Of a DNA stretch of 35,823 nucleotides, positions 27,767 through 35,823 are shown piece after piece (position 1 is the stretch's first letter; the number at the start of each line of letters is the position of its first letter). Origin of the DNA: Gammaproteobacteria bacterium (GTDB lineage Bacteria; Pseudomonadota; Gammaproteobacteria; Acidiferrobacterales; Sulfurifustaceae); NCBI GenBank assembly GCA_016194665.1, contig JACQBD010000090.1, forward strand, positions 1 to 35,823. Direction: 5' to 3'. The notes beneath the pieces are model-generated. The model was not told the origin of the DNA and did no database searches. It saw only the letters and a list, made by a program, of their open reading frames with translations. A program made the translations under genes and the position numbers.

Positions 27767-29263
27767 TTAATTTTTTGCCTCGCGCAATTTAGGCGCGGCT
27801 GAGATTTTAGCGGCGGCTGCCAAGCGCCGTTCGATTTGCTCGAGCCGGGCGCGGATCGCTTCGCCCATGGCGATTTGAGGGTTGGAAAATTCCTCGCGTT
27901 TCTCTTTTTCACGCGCGCGAATGATCGGCACCGCGCGTTGAAAGGCGGTCTCGAACGAGTAAGTTTGACGCAATTGTTCATCGAACAACGCCTTGGCGAA
28001 ATAGGTGAAATCGGATTCCGCGCCGCAGCCAAAGGAAGTGTGCGTGGCATCGGACGCGGTCATCACCAAGGTCGTTGGTCCCCGCAGAGGTTCGATGAAG
28101 CCGCCGGCGTAACACGCCGAGACGATCACCACGCGCCATTTTATTTTAGCCTCATCGAGTAATTGCTTGAGCAGCGTCGGATCCAGCTCTTCCAGCTGCA
28201 ACGGCCAATAATCGTTCGACAAGCGATGCTTCTTCGAACCGTGCGAAGTCAGGTAAACCACGACCACGTCATTTTGCGTATCGATGACGGCGCCGATATG
28301 TTGCAGCGATTCGCGCAAGTTGGTGACGGTCGCGAGCGGATAGCGGCGCAAGGTTTTATTGTTGTTCACCAGCAGCAAGGAACGGCCGTGCGTGCCGAAG
28401 CGTTCGTCCATCAAACTTCGAATTACTTCGCTTTCTTTTAGAAACACATCTTCATAAGAATAGGGCGCAAAGCCGACGAAATATAAATGCGCGGATCCTT
28501 TTTTGTTCGGCAACAGTGCTTTGATCGTCTGTTCCGCCAAGCGCGGCTGCAGGTATAGCATTTCTTCTGCCACCGGCGAATCCGCCTTAGGCGTATTGAG
28601 ATCCGCGTACTTATCCGAGGATTGGTACCATATCGGTTGCGGCGGCAACAAAAATCCAAGAGCGCCCATGAATAACAGCGGCGTCATCGTTAGCAAAACT
28701 CGCCGCGTGGATAGCTGCGCCGCGCGCAGTATAAATACCGCCGCGATCGCAATAAGCCATACGAACGCACCATAATAAACGCCGATCCATAACCAAGAAA
28801 TTTTATCCGGCGGCAATAATCGCGTGCCGACATGAATCGCCGCGGTTAACACCAAGTCGGTTATTAACATGGCAGAAAATAAAACCACCGGCAGCAGTAG
28901 CGGATTCACCCGCGTCACCGCTAAGCGCGCGCTCAACCATCCGACCAGCAGAAAGATCGGCAGGTCGAACCACAGGCCGCGTATTTCGTTCCAATTGAAG
29001 ACCACCGTGCCGCTGTAAAACGTACGGTTCAGGATAACGCCGAGACCAATGGCCAATAGCGCCATAACGATCAACTGTTCGGCGGACACGGCCCACGACT
29101 TGGCTTCAACCCGTTTGAAAAAAATAATTTTCGCGCCGTTCCATAAATTAGCCAACAAAGCGCGCGTTATTTTTCGAAACCGCGAGCGCAGGGACGGGGA
29201 AGATTGACGGTTGGAGCGATTTGGCGCGCGCGGCGCGCGGGACGCGGAACGTTTATTTTTCAA
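27767..29263 (-). CDS. Membrane-anchored C13-family (legumain/caspase-like) peptidase
   Basis: A 498-aa protein. A basic Arg/Lys/Ser-rich head (residues 1-50) precedes five predicted membrane helices between ~62 and ~210 (e.g. LIVMALLAIGLGVILN, FDLPIFLLVGWLSARLAV, LLLPVVLFSAMLITDLVLTA). The catalytic part follows, with His in VVVYLTSHGSKKH (about residue 338) and Cys in VVIVSACYAGGFIEPL (about 383). This is the His-Gly and Ala-Cys arrangement of clan CD. A C-terminal coiled coil (REKEKREEFSN, RARLEQIERRLAAAAK) closes it. The topology places the protease after the last helix. Function in bacteria is unproven. No obvious substrate gene is linked. Confidence 0.87.
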   Translation of the reverse strand: MKNKRSASRAPRAPNRSNRQSSPSLRSRFRKITRALLANLWNGAKIIFFKRVEAKSWAVSAEQLIVMALLAIGLGVILNRTFYSGTVVFNWNEIRGLWFDLPIFLLVGWLSARLAVTRVNPLLLPVVLFSAMLITDLVLTAAIHVGTRLLPPDKISWLWIGVYYGAFVWLIAIAAVFILRAAQLSTRRVLLTMTPLLFMGALGFLLPPQPIWYQSSDKYADLNTPKADSPVAEEMLYLQPRLAEQTIKALLPNKKGSAHLYFVGFAPYSYEDVFLKESEVIRSLMDERFGTHGRSLLLVNNNKTLRRYPLATVTNLRESLQHIGAVIDTQNDVVVVYLTSHGSKKHRLSNDYWPLQLEELDPTLLKQLLDEAKIKWRVVIVSACYAGGFIEPLRGPTTLVMTASDATHTSFGCGAESDFTYFAKALFDEQLRQTYSFETAFQRAVPIIRAREKEKREEFSNPQIAMGEAIRARLEQIERRLAAAAKISAAPKLREAKN

Positions 29264-30243: not shown

Positions 30244-31773
30244 TTAGCGAGTTTTGTTGCGCCGTCGCGCGACCAAAAATAATCCCCCCAGTCCGGAGAA
30301 CAGAAGCGGTAAGGCGGCGGGAATAGGTACGGAGGTTAGATTCCACGCCAACGCATAATCGCCGTCAAACGCGACTTGCGATTTGCCGGGAACGACCTCA
30401 AGTAAATAATTTCGATTGGGCGCTAAGCTTGTCCAAATATTTTCTGTGTTTTCTGTTGAGCTCGATGAGTCGGCGAGTAACAACGGAATACCGCCGCTTA
30501 TGTCGTATAACAAAAGATCCAGATCGAACAAGGTCGCCGCGCCAGAGAAAGCGGGCCCCGCGCCTTCGGCGATTTTAATATTCCACACCAAGGCAGCCGT
30601 TAATTTGCTAAGCCCCAATGGCGTGGAAAATTTGTATTGCGCGGTGTTATTGCTTCCACCGGCGCCGCCAAAATGCGGATCGTAATCGAATCCACGCGCG
30701 TTAATGAGTCCCGCGGCCGCGCCGCCGTCTTCAGCGCTATTTTGTTCGCCGGCCGCGAGCATGTGATAGCTGTTGAATATATTAATTTGACCCGCGCCGA
30801 AGCGTTTATCCAAACCATTCGCCGTTTGATTGGCGGGATCAAGGCGGTAGTCGACGATATTGGCGCTGCTCGTGTTATTCGTTTGACGATCGGCGCCCGC
30901 CATTAACGCCGCTTTGACCACTTCCGATCGCTCGGCGTTGTAAATCACATCGCCGTTGCGATTGGTGGTCGATTGCGTATTCAAGTCGGTGGAAAGATTT
31001 GGATTGTTGTGTCCGACGTTCACCAGCAAGGCCGCGGCCGAAGCCACTACCGGCGTGGCTTCGCTCGTGGTCGGCATCGGCGCGACGATATCGGGACGCA
31101 CGCGGCCGGCGGTATATGTGCTGTCCAATGACGGCGAGCCGGTGGTATGTTGGCCGTCGCTGCGCCCGACCGCGATCACGTTATAGGCGGAGCTGAGCAG
31201 CGGACTATTCGCCCCCACGCCGTTATTGACGCCGACCACTTGAATGAATTCATCTCGTGCCACAACCCAATCCACGCGTCGTAAAATATCGGCATCGGTC
31301 GCGGCGTTATCGGTACTACCGATCCAACTATGATTCGCCACGCGGCTGGAGGAAATTAACGGCTTGCGCGTATCGCCCATGCCGCGCAAATAATCCGCGC
31401 CCAACCAGTTATCCGCCAAATAGGCATCGATTAAATTAATTCCCGGCGTCATGGAATAACTATTCCCATAAAAAATCGCGCCCACGCCCGTGGCGTGTCC
31501 GGAATAAACGCCCGAACTAAGTCCGGATTTGTCGGTGATGGTCTTTCCCAAAAATTGCGCGTTGTTCGGATCGGGAAGATAAATTGTCGGGGGATTATCC
31601 GCAGCGGCTTCGACATGACTCAGCCTGACACCCGCACCATTCGGCAAGCTCGCGCCTAATTCGGATTGCAGAGCGGTGTAGCCGATGTCGTTTCGATAAT
31701 CGGCCGACGACGCCGAAATATAATAAAACGGAGATAGCCACAATAAAATTATTAAACGAGAACGTATGTTCAT
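30244..31773 (-). CDS. S8 (subtilisin)-like protein with VPLPA-CTERM sorting signal
   Basis: A 509-aa exported protein with a signal peptide (MNIRSRLIILLWLSPFYYIS). Subtilase features are SGHATGVGAIFYGNS (His about residue 91) and TTSEATPVVASAAALLVNVG (Ser about 236), plus an oxyanion-like VANHSW. The usual Asp motif (V.V.D(T/S)G) is replaced by GVRLSHVEAAAD, so activity is doubtful. The C-terminus VPIPAALPLLFSGLGGLFLV then RRRNK is a VPLPA-CTERM signal (Pro-rich motif, helix, Arg cluster) for exosortase processing. No exosortase is in the window. GGAGGAG at about 31780-31786 fits ATG 31773; an upstream in-frame ATG at 31809 is rejected. Confidence 0.85.
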   Translation of the reverse strand: MNIRSRLIILLWLSPFYYISASSADYRNDIGYTALQSELGASLPNGAGVRLSHVEAAADNPPTIYLPDPNNAQFLGKTITDKSGLSSGVYSGHATGVGAIFYGNSYSMTPGINLIDAYLADNWLGADYLRGMGDTRKPLISSSRVANHSWIGSTDNAATDADILRRVDWVVARDEFIQVVGVNNGVGANSPLLSSAYNVIAVGRSDGQHTTGSPSLDSTYTAGRVRPDIVAPMPTTSEATPVVASAAALLVNVGHNNPNLSTDLNTQSTTNRNGDVIYNAERSEVVKAALMAGADRQTNNTSSANIVDYRLDPANQTANGLDKRFGAGQINIFNSYHMLAAGEQNSAEDGGAAAGLINARGFDYDPHFGGAGGSNNTAQYKFSTPLGLSKLTAALVWNIKIAEGAGPAFSGAATLFDLDLLLYDISGGIPLLLADSSSSTENTENIWTSLAPNRNYLLEVVPGKSQVAFDGDYALAWNLTSVPIPAALPLLFSGLGGLFLVARRRNKTR

Positions 31774-31917
31774 TTTTTCTCCTCCACGGCGCATGTTTGG
31801 CGGATTCATTCTTTTTGTTAGAGGTTGGGTTTTGTCGCAGGTTGCGGGTAGAAAACAATTAAACTGATGATACCTTAAGCTTTATGTGTCTATCGAGCGA
31901 ATAGTTATCTCTTTGGC

Positions 31918-31980: not shown

Positions 31981-32808
31981 TCAGGGCCCTTGAAAAATTC
32001 CGTCAATCAAAAATACTCTTATGCTGATCCCGAAACACTTCACTCTTGCGATCACCGCCATGCGGCAAGCGTTCGATTCTACGCTTCAAAGTCGTTTCAA
32101 TATTTTCCTTGAACCGGTTACTACCCAGGACAGTTCCGGTTTCCGTGGCGCTGCGTATCGCTTGAAGTTCCATGGGATCAGTGTGAGCGTTAAACAAAGC
32201 ACGATAAGCCATGCAACGTTGCGTATCATCGGCATCCAAGTTTATATAGAGAAAATGCGGCGTCAGTAGCGTATCGGTTTGACCGAGCGCATTGTGCCGA
32301 TAACTTGACCAACGATAATCACCGGGTTGCGAAACCATTCGTGCCCGCACCGGGTTTAGCTCGATATATCGGCTGCATATCAGTAGATAGCGATCAGAAT
32401 CAATCAGTGCTGATTTGTAACGTCCTTCCCACAATGTACCCGTACGGCGATACACGTGATTGATGTAACGTACGTAACGCCGACCGACCGATTGCAATAC
32501 CACCGAAGGCGATTCAACCGATTCCGGCGTCAGCAATAAATGCACATGATTAGTCATCAGAACGTAGGCGTGGAGACGACAGCCGTAACGACGTGATGCG
32601 TCCTCCAGACTATCTAAGTAAAAACGGTAATCGTCATCGGCAAAGAAACACGGTTCTCGGTTGTTACCGCGCTGGATGAGATGCAGCGGTTGTCCGGGTA
32701 TCACAAGACGAGGAAGTCGGGCCATGATGGCATTCCATTGCAGTTTGATAAATTTGAGGAAGAGTAAGCGGTGGGGTGAAAGTTTTCAAGGACTCTGACC
32801 CCTTGATT
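31972..32808 (-). mobile_element. REPtron: RAYT gene between inverted REP-like ends
   Basis: The left end (31972-31996, beginning ATCAAGGGGTCAGGGCC) is the inverted counterpart of the right end (32783-32808, beginning TTTTCAAGGACTCTGACCCC). Aligned in the same sense they differ at only a few positions. Between them lies one HUH transposase gene on the minus strand. Tandem partial copies of the ends extend outward on both sides. This fits the REP-associated tyrosine transposase type of domesticated element. Confidence 0.8.
32003..32725 (-). CDS. REP-associated tyrosine transposase (RAYT, Y1_Tnp family)
   Basis: A 240-aa HUH single-strand nuclease/transposase. It begins MARLPRLVIPGQPLHLIQRG, normal for the family. 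The metal-binding HUH pair is TNHVHLLL (H60, H62) and the probable catalytic tyrosine is Y120 in SRYIELNPVRARM. GTLWEGRYKSALI is also conserved. The C-terminal ~70 residues (RFKENIETTLKRRIERLPHG) are basic. The frame appears intact. RAYTs cut at REP hairpins and are thought to spread them in the genome. It lies between inverted REP-like ends (31972-31996, 32783-32808). Confidence 0.93.
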   Translation of the reverse strand: MARLPRLVIPGQPLHLIQRGNNREPCFFADDDYRFYLDSLEDASRRYGCRLHAYVLMTNHVHLLLTPESVESPSVVLQSVGRRYVRYINHVYRRTGTLWEGRYKSALIDSDRYLLICSRYIELNPVRARMVSQPGDYRWSSYRHNALGQTDTLLTPHFLYINLDADDTQRCMAYRALFNAHTDPMELQAIRSATETGTVLGSNRFKENIETTLKRRIERLPHGGDRKSEVFRDQHKSIFD

Positions 32809-32834
32809 CGCCTTGATTCGGACCCCTTGATTCG
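32797..32834. repeat. Tandem CCTTGATTCG repeats right of the RAYT gene
   Basis: CCTTGATTCG occurs at 32801, 32811 and 32825; the first and third copies extend to GACCCCTTGATTCG. The last copy abuts the SymE-like fragment without a start codon. Confidence 0.85.
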
Positions 32835-33017
32835 CACTACGATTACAAACTGAAGGGAGACGCCAACCTTTACCGCGTTAACCGGGCGGTGCCGTGGGTA
32901 CAGTTGAAAGGGTATTGGTTGGAAGCCGTGGGGTTTAACATTGATACGCGGATTCAGGTTAGGGTGATGAAGGGGTGTTTGGTGTTGACGGTGATCACCG
33001 AACCGCAGGAAGAATGA
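32817..33017 (+). pseudogene. SymE-family toxin fragment lacking its start
   Basis: Reading in frame to the TGA at 33015-33017 gives SHYDYKLKGDANLYRVNRAV, PWVQLKGYWLEAVGFNIDTR, then IQVRVMKGCLVLTVITEPQEE. This matches the SymE-type swapped-hairpin domain (PWLxLxGxWLExAGF.I...V.V.V..G.LVI). The frame is closed upstream by TGA at 32814-32816 and contains no ATG before the domain. The expected first ~15-20 residues are replaced by REP-like repeats. SymE proteins are type I toxin-antitoxin toxins or RNA-binding proteins. Here the gene looks decapitated, unless it starts at an internal GTG (about 32889). Confidence 0.8.
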
Positions 33018-33040
33018 AGCCCGGCGTGAGCCGGGCTTCA
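33015..33040. terminator. Perfect 11-bp hairpin overlapping the SymE-like stop
   Basis: TGAAGCCCGGC (33015-33025) pairs with GCCGGGCTTCA (33030-33040) around GTGA. The stem includes the stop codon of the SymE-like fragment. The T-rich sequence after it is loose, but position between convergent genes fits a bidirectional terminator. Confidence 0.6.
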
Positions 33041-33062
33041 TTCGTTGGGTTTATTTCATTGC

Positions 33063-33305
33063 TTAACTTAATTTATTTTTCCTTTTGTGTCGAAAGAAAG
33101 AATAAATTCCCCAGCCGATAGCCATGGCGATGGGGACGTAACCCGTTACATCTGTGTAATCTTTGACCAGAGATACGACTCCAGCCGCTGCGCACAAAAT
33201 GACAAATAGAATGTCAGCAATTTCACTTTGGCGATTAAGAGTCGCTAAATTAAGGATGTTTACCATTATAAAAAGCACCATCAATATAAAAGTGGAAGTA
33301 TCCAT
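33063..33305 (-). CDS. Small three-helix membrane protein, candidate Rhs immunity protein
   Basis: An 80-aa protein of unknown family with three hydrophobic segments: TFILMVLFIMVNILNLATL (about 4-22), IADILFVILCAAAGVVSLV (about 29-47) and GYVPIAMAIGWGIYSFF (about 55-71). A positive tail (RHKRKNK) should lie in the cytoplasm. The start is 15 nt after the Rhs stop, and GGGAG in that gap (about 33315-33319) serves as ribosome site. The gene and the Rhs tail are both clearly more AT-rich than the Rhs core. Position directly behind an Rhs C-terminus is where immunity genes lie; membrane immunity proteins usually oppose membrane-acting toxins. Function is inferred from context only. Confidence 0.65.
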   Translation of the reverse strand: MDTSTFILMVLFIMVNILNLATLNRQSEIADILFVILCAAAGVVSLVKDYTDVTGYVPIAMAIGWGIYSFFRHKRKNKLS

Positions 33306-33320
33306 TATGTTTCGCTCCCT

Positions 33321-35823
33321 TTATTTCTTATCAGCTGGGCATTGTTTTGTTTTATCGCATTTTTTTTCACATATTTTCTCAACAACAATTTCACAAGCTA
33401 TGTAGGCACCGCCTTTTGCATACCAGGGACCTGGCGTGCTTTCGGGAGGTAGCCCGGCGCCGCAACTTGGATCTGCACAACGCTTTCCATTATTCTGCTG
33501 CTGAACCCAATCGTGAATGGTGTCCGGTGTGTTGGGATCGTAAGTTGTGCTGCCATCCGCATTGATGGTTGTGCCTAATCCCGTCGGATCCGTCCACCGC
33601 AACGGATTATTTAATACCGGCACATACGGATTCAATTCCAGCAGGCCTTTCCCTGTTTTCCATCGTTGAACATGTTCTACGACCGACATTTTATCGGCCG
33701 TGATCCATCTTCCGATCCGGGGGTCGTAGTAGTTGTTCCAGTTGTAATACAAACCAGTTTCTTGATCCGCATACATTCCGGACAACCTCACATTATTCCC
33801 AATCGCCTGCTTCGCAATCGTAACCCCCCCAAACGGCTCATACTCCGCCCGCCACACCACCGCCCCGACACTGTTCGTCATACTCTGCGGCGCCCCCAAC
33901 TGATCCGTATGGTAATAATAAATATCGGCGTCCTGATCGATGCGCGCCAACAGCATATTATTTAAATACACATACCCCTTCGTATTCCCCCCCTGACTTT
34001 CATACAACAACTCCCCCGCCGGCCCATAATGAAACCGCGTCGTCAGACCCTGAGCGGTTTTGCGGGTACGTTGATCGAACGCATTGTAAGCATACGTCGC
34101 CGCCCCGGAGAGAGCGCTGACCATCCGCCCGTAGCCGTCATACCCCAGCACGTACGCGGTGTTATTCCACGACGCGTTCCCCGCCGCGTCGTACAACCAA
34201 TACTGACTTTCGTTGTCCATGAGCCGGTTTCGCTGGTAGGTGTAAGTCTGCGTGCTGCCGTTACGCGTCTCGCTTTGGCGGTTACCGTTCGGATGGTAGA
34301 GATAACTTAAACTGCCGTAGCTGCCGGTCTGCGTGTTGGCGGCGCTGGCGAGCTCGTTGATGGGATCGTAGGTAAACGTTTGCGTCGTATCATTGCCATC
34401 GTATAGCTCCTGCAAGTTACCCGCCGGATCGTAGCTGGCGTTCTTCCATCGCGGACCGCTGCGCTGAAAAGTAGGGCGGTAACCCTGATCCTGGTTCATA
34501 AAATAATACTGCCCGTTACCGAAGCTAAAGCTATTCACGGGACCGAAGGGATAATAGCGCAGGGCACTCGCCAGGATCGTGGTCACGCCGTTGGCACGGG
34601 TGCTCACTTGGCTGACTCTTCCCAACGGATCGTACTCGTAATCCACCGTACGGTCCGACGGATAGCCAATGCGCAGCAATTTTCCCCCCGGTGAGTAGGT
34701 GTAGTTACTGTAGAAGTTCGTGTTGAGATCGAGCTGAAAATTATTCCGCCCCAGACCGTCGTAGCCCAGCATCAGTTGGTAGCCGCCGCTGGGAAATAAA
34801 TAGCACAGCCGTCCCGTAAAGCAGCTGTCGTAAAAATACGTATACGCCGGAGTGCCGCCAGCGGTACTTTGCTTCGATAACACCCGGTTCAAGGAATCGT
34901 AGGTGTACGCGGTCACCTGTCCCAAGGCGTTGGTCACGGTTAACACATTGCCCGCGGCATCGTACGTGTAACTCGTCGTGCCGCGATCGCGCGAGACCTC
35001 TTTTAATAAATTCCCGAGATCGTCGTAACTGTACGTGGTAGCGATATTATTCGGCGCCGTCACCGCCACCGGCCGGTCGTTCACGTCATAGCCGTACAGC
35101 GTACTCTGGCTTAAGGCGTTGACGCTGTTCATCAGGCGATTCAAGGCGTCGTAACTTTGGCCGCTGTTGTGATTGTTCGGATCGGTTTCGGAGAGGGAAT
35201 TTCCCAGGGCATCGTTGAGAATGGTCGTCACACTGCCGGCGTCGCCCGGAAACCGGAGCTGGCTTAAATGATTGCGCAAGTCATAGGCATAACCGACCGA
35301 ACGCGTGAGGTAGCCGGTGGGGTCGTAGGTGTAATCCGTGATGCGGTTGCCTTTGAGGTCGTAGGTGTAACGAATGCTGTTGCCGGCGGCATCGGTGATG
35401 GTTCTTAGGTAATGGGCGTCATCATAACCGTAGGTTAACACCACCCCGTCGGGATCGATCACGCGACTGACATCGCCCCAGGGGGTGTAGTCATACTGGG
35501 TCATGGCGGCACTGCCGGCGGTCGGGGTGAGGGTAATGGTCTTGACGCGTCCGCGCGAATCATAGGTATACGCCGTGACTACGCCGTTGGCATCGGTCAG
35601 GCGTAACAACCTTCCGTTGGCATCGTAATCAGTAAAGTTTGTCACCTGACCTAACGCATTGGTGACCGACTGTAACTGTCCGCAGCCACCGCCGGTGGTG
35701 CAGGTGTAATAAGACAAGGTGGTCACGTCGTTGACGTCGGTGCGGGGGCCGTTGAGGGAAGTCACTTGGCCATTGGCGTTGTAGCTTACGTTCACTGTGC
35801 GCGAGACGGGGGTGGCGGTGGGG
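33321..35823 (-). CDS. Rhs-repeat protein, 5' end beyond the window, with variable C-terminal tail
   Basis: At least 833 codons, open to the window's right edge (the residues before GTG 35795 continue the frame). It is built of many YD repeats (YDANGRLLRLTDANG, YDSRGRVKTITL, YDDLGNLLKEVSRDRGTTSY). The Rhs-associated core follows: YYYHTDQLGAPQSMTN, EYEPFGG, then GLYYNWNNYYDPRIGRWITA. It ends in NPLRWTDPTGL (33576-33590), the usual boundary between the conserved shell and the toxin. The 84-residue tail has six cysteines (e.g. RCADPSCGAGL, ACEIVVEKICEKKC) and matches no toxin I know. The last ~150 nt are AT-rich. The downstream membrane protein is a likely immunity partner. No secretion-system gene is visible. 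Confidence 0.92.
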   Translation of the reverse strand, partial: PTATPVSRTVNVSYNANGQVTSLNGPRTDVNDVTTLSYYTCTTGGGCGQLQSVTNALGQVTNFTDYDANGRLLRLTDANGVVTAYTYDSRGRVKTITLTPTAGSAAMTQYDYTPWGDVSRVIDPDGVVLTYGYDDAHYLRTITDAAGNSIRYTYDLKGNRITDYTYDPTGYLTRSVGYAYDLRNHLSQLRFPGDAGSVTTILNDALGNSLSETDPNNHNSGQSYDALNRLMNSVNALSQSTLYGYDVNDRPVAVTAPNNIATTYSYDDLGNLLKEVSRDRGTTSYTYDAAGNVLTVTNALGQVTAYTYDSLNRVLSKQSTAGGTPAYTYFYDSCFTGRLCYLFPSGGYQLMLGYDGLGRNNFQLDLNTNFYSNYTYSPGGKLLRIGYPSDRTVDYEYDPLGRVSQVSTRANGVTTILASALRYYPFGPVNSFSFGNGQYYFMNQDQGYRPTFQRSGPRWKNASYDPAGNLQELYDGNDTTQTFTYDPINELASAANTQTGSYGSLSYLYHPNGNRQSETRNGSTQTYTYQRNRLMDNESQYWLYDAAGNASWNNTAYVLGYDGYGRMVSALSGAATYAYNAFDQRTRKTAQGLTTRFHYGPAGELLYESQGGNTKGYVYLNNMLLARIDQDADIYYYHTDQLGAPQSMTNSVGAVVWRAEYEPFGGVTIAKQAIGNNVRLSGMYADQETGLYYNWNNYYDPRIGRWITADKMSVVEHVQRWKTGKGLLELNPYVPVLNNPLRWTDPTGLGTTINADGSTTYDPNTPDTIHDWVQQQNNGKRCADPSCGAGLPPESTPGPWYAKGGAYIACEIVVEKICEKKCDKTKQCPADKK

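What the first reader, a model, noticed from the sequence alone, without database searches (positions are those of the whole stretch)
33063..33590. Candidate new polymorphic toxin-immunity pair at the end of an Rhs gene
After the DPTGL boundary the Rhs protein carries an 84-residue, six-cysteine tail that I cannot assign. Fifteen nt later comes an 80-aa three-helix membrane protein with its own ribosome site. Both are AT-rich compared with the Rhs core, as expected for exchangeable modules. A Cys-rich tail with a hydrophobic patch (WYAKGGAYIACEIVV) opposed by a membrane immunity protein would suggest a membrane-acting toxin.
Basis: partly seen in the sequence, partly recalled or inferred. Interest (0 to 1): 0.65.

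Follow-up and report, generated by a model that had tools for sequence, protein, structure and literature searches.

The report
Rhs toxin tip with membrane immunity gene
The end of a large secreted bacterial Rhs protein carries a small, exchangeable, cysteine-rich tip of unknown family, followed directly by a gene for a small membrane protein; this looks like one more toxin-and-antidote pair of a well-known bacterial weapon type, but toxicity is inferred and not shown.

Summary
On the minus strand an Rhs gene (open at the contig edge) ends in PxxxxDPTGL plus an 84-residue, six-Cys tail. Fifteen nt later an 80-aa membrane protein starts behind a good ribosome site. The tail and the small protein match no Pfam, NCBIfam or PADLOC family. 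Two refinements. (1) The boundary is real: the Rhs core is 62% identical over 757 aligned positions to an Rhs of the same genus, and the match stops at DPTG; that Rhs then carries an unrelated phospholipase-A2-like tip. (2) The tail is not one AT-rich module. Its first ~38 residues are core-like in GC and reappear (66% over 29 residues) in one relative, where a different Cys-rich C-half and different small membrane genes follow. The variable part is therefore only ~46 residues. Homologous cores in this genome begin with signal-peptide-like N-termini, and no T6SS sheath gene (VipA) was found in the 82%-complete genome. Best reading: a Sec-exported polymorphic Rhs toxin with a membrane immunity protein, a new orphan member of a known kind. 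Membrane action is plausible but weakly supported, because the tail itself has no transmembrane helix. Decay is a real rival: the contig joined to this gene's 5' end carries a frameshifted N-terminal part.

The parts
33321..35822 (-). Rhs/YD-repeat protein, C-terminal 833 aa (5' end runs off the contig)
   Evidence: Pfam RHS_repeat E 5e-52, RHS E 1e-15, NCBIfam Rhs_assc_core E 2.5e-18; core 62% identical over 757 aligned positions to same-genus Rhs in G007
33693..33695 (-). Asp710 of 'ITADKM', placed like the first Asp of the Rhs aspartyl self-cleavage site (inferred)
   Evidence: position; role by analogy with Tse5 D1141/D1164 (PMC9637101)
33576..33590 (-). DPTGL module boundary with second Asp (Asp745); inferred self-cleavage after Leu749
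   Evidence: homology to the G007 core stops here
33462..33575 (-). tail residues 1-38, containing YDPNTPDTIHDWVQQQNNGKRCADPSC: conserved linker/entry-like part, core-like GC (54%)
   Evidence: 66% identity over 29 residues to the G002/JACQER010000102.1 tail; 0 of 5000 shuffles as good
33324..33461 (-). tail residues 39-84: variable, AT-rich (41% GC), four-Cys candidate toxin part
   Evidence: no homologue at E<=0.001; AlphaFold2 pLDDT about 30-40 here
33315..33320 (-). AGGGAG ribosome-binding site of the small gene
   Evidence: sequence
33063..33305 (-). 80-aa membrane protein, candidate immunity protein
   Evidence: hydropathy, AlphaFold2 three helices, no confident homologue
33012..33043 (.). 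perfect 14-bp hairpin GAATGAAGCCCGGC-TCAC-GCCGGGCTTCATTC closing the two-gene unit, probable terminator shared with the opposing symE remnant

Best explanation
A polymorphic toxin locus of the Rhs kind. The Rhs protein is probably exported through Sec. Its YD-repeat shell wraps the C-terminal piece, which is cut after DPTGL by the built-in aspartyl self-cleavage site and released near or on a neighbouring cell. The released 84-residue piece has two parts: a conserved ~38-residue linker or entry segment and a swapped ~46-residue Cys-rich part that does the damage, probably outside the cytoplasm or at the inner membrane, with Cys pairs oxidised to disulfides during export. The 80-aa protein sits in the producer's inner membrane and blocks the toxin there. 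Shown here: module boundary, replacement of the tip in a close relative, operon-like layout, hydrophobic small protein, and signal-peptide-like N-termini on homologous Rhs proteins. Inferred: cleavage, toxicity, disulfides, membrane target, immunity.
For: Core 62% identical to the G007 Rhs with the match ending at the boundary, after which G007 has an unrelated 11-Cys phospholipase-A2-like tip with CC..H..C. The tail's N-part recurs in G002 (named record JACQER010000102.1), but there the C-half and the downstream small membrane genes are different: the C-half and the following gene change together. Both Asp of the Rhs self-cleavage site are placed as in Tse5, which cleaves directly after DPxGL. 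Ribosome site, 15-nt gap and closing hairpin. In 67 Rhs ends of the order and class, tips with 5 or more Cys are more often followed by a small protein with 2 or more membrane segments (10/23 against 6/39, p 0.02; 8/21 against 6/39, p 0.06, without the two loci that suggested it). Rhs N-termini in this genome (C25, C43, C132) and in G007 look like Sec signal peptides (read by eye), and no VipA was found in the genome.
Against: No relative of the exact pair exists anywhere searched, so co-inheritance of this tail with this gene is untested. The tail has no predicted fold (pLDDT 42) and no catalytic signature, and 46 residues is short for a toxin. C43, whose end overlaps this gene's start by an exact 119 nt, carries an N-terminal part with a frame change and a missing stretch, so this copy may be decaying. 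The hydropathy of the tail is low. The Cys/membrane association is exploratory and borderline.
Confidence: 0.66

Rival explanations
1. Decaying or truncated tip: the window tail is what remains of a longer Cys-rich tip like the 154-residue one in G002, and the Rhs gene is itself a pseudogene; the small membrane gene is a surviving orphan immunity gene.
For: The G002 tail shares the N-part and is 70 residues longer. The window tail also ends in a C-x3-C-x(4,5)-CP pattern like G002 (CEKKCDKTKQCP against CTKKCKDDNCP), but this is not significant (2-6% of shuffles as good). C43, whose end overlaps the window's Rhs start exactly over 119 nt, has its N-terminal part in two frames. A RAYT gene and a broken symE lie next door.
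Against: The 833 codons in the window are open without a stop. C25 carries an intact signal-peptide Rhs N-part that ends at the same branch point (97.5% identical over 202 nt to C43) and may be the true partner. The GC step inside the tail looks like a swap rather than a deletion.
Confidence: 0.2
2. The tip is a Sec-exported, disulfide-bonded binding or enzyme-inhibiting peptide, or an adhesin-like terminus, not a toxin; the membrane gene is a chance neighbour.
For: No toxin family match; six Cys; low hydropathy; small size.
Against: Exact tip replacement in a close relative, and the layout of an immunity gene directly behind the tip as in many of the 67 surveyed Rhs ends.
Confidence: 0.12
3. 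The tip is an enzyme acting on envelope components (lipid or peptidoglycan), with the membrane protein shielding the target, as for the phospholipase-A2-like Rhs tips followed by small membrane proteins.
For: PLA2-like tips with following membrane genes occur in the survey (L058, L107, L116) and the closest core carries a PLA2-like tip.
Against: The window tail lacks CC..H..C or any HD..Y-type signature, and ~46-84 residues is small for a lipase.
Confidence: 0.1

Closest known systems
Tse5/Tsi5 (Rhs pore-former with 2-TM immunity, PMC9637101)
   Same: Rhs shell, Asp-pair self-cleavage after DPxGL, C-terminal toxin without a known fold, small integral-membrane immunity protein encoded with it
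   Different: Tse5 is T6SS-delivered with a PAAR-like N-terminus; its toxin is 149 residues with membrane-inserting segments; no sequence comparison was made here; the window tail is shorter, Cys-rich and not hydrophobic
CDI ionophore toxins with CdiI (PMC11630599)
   Same: bipartite toxin (N-terminal entry part, C-terminal active part); very hydrophobic immunity proteins of 72-100 residues
   Different: CdiA, not Rhs; five-helix ionophore; two-helix immunity; no sequence comparison made here
Tox-WTIP and Ntox38 (PMC3482391)
   Same: small non-enzymatic tips: WTIP occurs on RHS proteins with T2SS/Sec export; Ntox38 is only 33-43 residues
   Different: window tail lacks RxxR, Wx[ST]IP and transmembrane helices; Ntox38 is actinobacterial and T7SS-linked
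Phospholipase-A2-like Rhs tips (G007, L107, L116, L058)
   Same: Cys-rich tips on signal-peptide Rhs of related bacteria; in L107, L116 and L058 followed by small membrane genes
   Different: they carry the PLA2-type His/Cys signature; the window tail does not
Bacterial teneurin-like proteins (PMC13018210)
   Same: signal-peptide export, YD shell, polymorphic C-terminal toxin with immunity gene in the same operon
   Different: teneurin-type architecture; no evidence that the window protein is one

Membership tests
Rhs polymorphic toxin system | YD/RHS repeats and Rhs-associated core ending in PxxxxDPxGL | tested here: met
Rhs polymorphic toxin system | conserved core with unrelated tips in relatives, switching at the boundary | tested here: met
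   62% identity over 757 aligned positions ending at DPTG against G007, different tip; 67 tips surveyed
Rhs polymorphic toxin system | cognate immunity gene directly downstream | tested here: inconclusive
   small membrane gene at +15 nt, but no second copy of the pair to test co-inheritance
Rhs polymorphic toxin system | tip is toxic and neutralised by the neighbour | not testable with these tools
   needs expression assay
T6SS-delivered Rhs (PAAR-Rhs) | T6SS present; PAAR N-terminus | tested here: not met
   no VipA in the 82%-complete genome; homologous N-termini look like signal peptides, no PAAR seen by eye; the window's own N-terminus is off the contig
Tox-WTIP pore-forming tip | two TM helices, RxxR and Wx[ST]IP | tested here: not met
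   motifs absent; maximum 19-residue hydropathy 0.69
Phospholipase A2-like tip | CC..H..C active-site signature | tested here: not met
   absent in window tail, present in G007 tail
Tse5-like Rhs pore-former | Asp pair for self-cleavage | tested here: met
   D710 and D745 by position; cleavage itself not tested
Tse5-like Rhs pore-former | membrane-inserting C-terminal toxin | tested here: not met
   no TM segment by hydropathy

The most novel reading that the evidence does not exclude
A new family of very small (~46-residue), disulfide-stabilised, Sec-delivered Rhs toxin tips, in which a conserved ~38-residue entry segment is combined with interchangeable Cys-rich membrane-active ends, each matched by a small multi-helix immunity protein.
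Probability: 0.2. Interest if true: 0.6.

Novelty: new member of a known kind. Interest (0 to 1): 0.36.

Why it matters
Rhs tips are a main source of undiscovered bacterial toxins. If toxic, this would be among the smallest Rhs tips, and the split into a shared segment and a swapped end would give a testable model for how Rhs proteins without a type VI machine get their payload to the membrane. As it stands it is a single orphan example of a well-established layout.

Tried and rejected
Pfam, NCBIfam and PADLOC scans of tail and small protein: no family above its cut-off; weak membrane-protein matches such as YabQ, E 0.002, below cut-off. PDB sequence search: only chance Cys-pattern matches (parkin, sphingomyelinase, E 0.04 and worse). 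Plasmids, phages and viral contigs: no relatives. Weak hits to the tail in other genomes: of those translated (L004, L007, L015, L018), none showed an Rhs tip. The weak relative of the small protein in G007 (27%, L029) is a small membrane ORF upstream of an aminotransferase gene (ArnB-like by eye), away from Rhs, and the G058 hit lies in a 248-aa frame. Similarity of the last 12 residues to the G002 tail: not significant. AlphaFold2 of the tail: no usable model, so no fold search was run. P0002 is not detectably homologous to the small membrane proteins after the G002 tail. One query (protein 4, symE) carried extra N-terminal letters that are not in the window; the clean repeat is.

Full report
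Observation. The window is the whole of contig C109 of a 2.45-Mb, 82%-complete genome. The only named relative found, one that the search lists in the same genus, is a groundwater Gammaproteobacteria MAG. On the minus strand an Rhs ORF (33321-35822) runs in from the contig edge and ends in DPTGL plus 84 residues with six Cys. AGGGAG lies 9 nt before an ATG that starts an 80-aa ORF 15 nt after the Rhs stop. A perfect 14-bp hairpin follows. The AT-richness is only half right: the first half of the tail has 54% GC, like the core, and only the second half (41%) and the small gene (38%) are AT-rich.

The boundary is real. The window's Rhs core aligns at 62% identity over 757 positions to an Rhs in another genome of the same genus (G007:C103), and the match stops at DPTG. 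From there G007 has an unrelated 107-residue tip with 11 Cys and a phospholipase-A2-type CC..H..C signature. Both Asp residues corresponding to the Rhs self-cleavage site are in place. Cleavage after Leu749, as in Tse5, would release exactly the 84-residue piece; that step is inferred.

The tail has two parts. The only relative in 84,980 species scanned by peptide pattern, and in the genomes of the order and class searched by phmmer-type comparison, is in JACQER010000102.1 / G002:C191. Residues 10-38 are 66% identical there (0 of 5000 shuffles as good). After that the two differ: G002 goes on for another ~110 residues with more Cys and glycine-rich stretches, and is followed at +30 nt by a different 96-aa membrane protein and then a second one. 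The window's membrane protein has no detectable similarity to either. So the shared segment stays while the C-half and the following gene change, which is what a cognate pair predicts, but this is a single comparison.

Context in relatives. Sixty-seven Rhs ends from the order and class were extracted. Tips are very diverse. Tips with at least five Cys are followed by a small protein with at least two membrane segments in 10 of 23 cases, others in 6 of 39 (p 0.02; p 0.06 after leaving out the two loci that suggested the idea). The thresholds were chosen here, so this is a hint only. Several of these pairs have phospholipase-A2-like tips, so a membrane immunity gene does not prove a pore-forming tip.

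Export. Rhs N-termini in G007 and in this genome's contigs C25, C43 and C132 look like signal peptides (read by eye, no dedicated predictor), and the T6SS sheath gene VipA was not found in this incomplete genome. Sec export fits a Cys-rich payload that could form disulfides in the periplasm; the last step is inference.

Which N-terminus belongs to this gene is not settled. The end of C43 is identical to the window's start over 119 nt, as expected for neighbouring contigs in an assembly graph. C43's Rhs part is split over two frames with a missing stretch. C25 carries an intact N-part that ends at almost the same point and is 97.5% identical to C43 over 202 nt, but it does not overlap the window exactly. 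The window's gene may therefore be intact (C25) or broken (C43). No joining was attempted.

Mechanism. The best-supported account is a Sec-exported Rhs polymorphic toxin whose released tip acts outside the cytoplasm or at the inner membrane and is blocked by a membrane-embedded immunity protein. Precedents: Tse5/Tsi5 (PMC9637101), CDI ionophores with 72-100-residue hydrophobic immunity proteins and bipartite toxins (PMC11630599), and tips as small as 33-43 residues (Ntox38, PMC3482391). Against a simple pore-former: the tail has no hydrophobic stretch long enough for a membrane helix, and structure prediction gave no fold.

Verdict. The feature is real, the layout is that of a known kind, and the tip and small gene are orphan families. 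The observation that the tail is bipartite, with only ~46 residues variable, is the main addition. Interest is moderate to low until toxicity is shown.

Noticed in passing
window 32841-33017, + strand: Truncated symE-like toxin gene (Pfam SymE_toxin E 4e-15 over the last 37 profile positions; the start is missing), convergent with the Rhs unit and cut next to two 21-nt direct repeats at 32791-32835.
   Followed up: partly
window 32003-32725, - strand: REP-associated tyrosine transposase (RAYT; Y1_Tnp E 1e-12) beside the broken symE; the GGGGTCAGAGTC motif next to it occurs once in the window, and AAGGGGTCAGAGTC once in the genome.
   Followed up: partly
L027 2180-2896 / G002:C191: Orphan Rhs tip of about 250 aa that starts with its own signal-peptide-like sequence and lacks the YD shell; several further short Rhs-tip ORFs (205-274 aa) lie in the same genome (C107, C22, C67, C124, C89).
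   Followed up: partly
L054/L128 (G007:C103), L058, L107, L116: Phospholipase-A2-like Cys-rich tips on Rhs proteins (signal peptide seen for G007), with small multi-helix membrane proteins directly downstream in L058, L107 and L116: a recurrent toxin/immunity layout in these bacteria.
   Followed up: partly
L040/L126 (G000:C132) and L041 (G020): A second Rhs in the same genome has a 9-Cys tip with a distant relative in another family of the order; both are followed by similar 106-110-aa soluble proteins.
   Followed up: no
window 27767-29263 and 30244-31809, - strand: Peptidase C13 (legumain-like) protein and a VPLPA/PEP-CTERM-type sorted protein with a weak subtilase match, upstream of the RAYT.
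   Followed up: no
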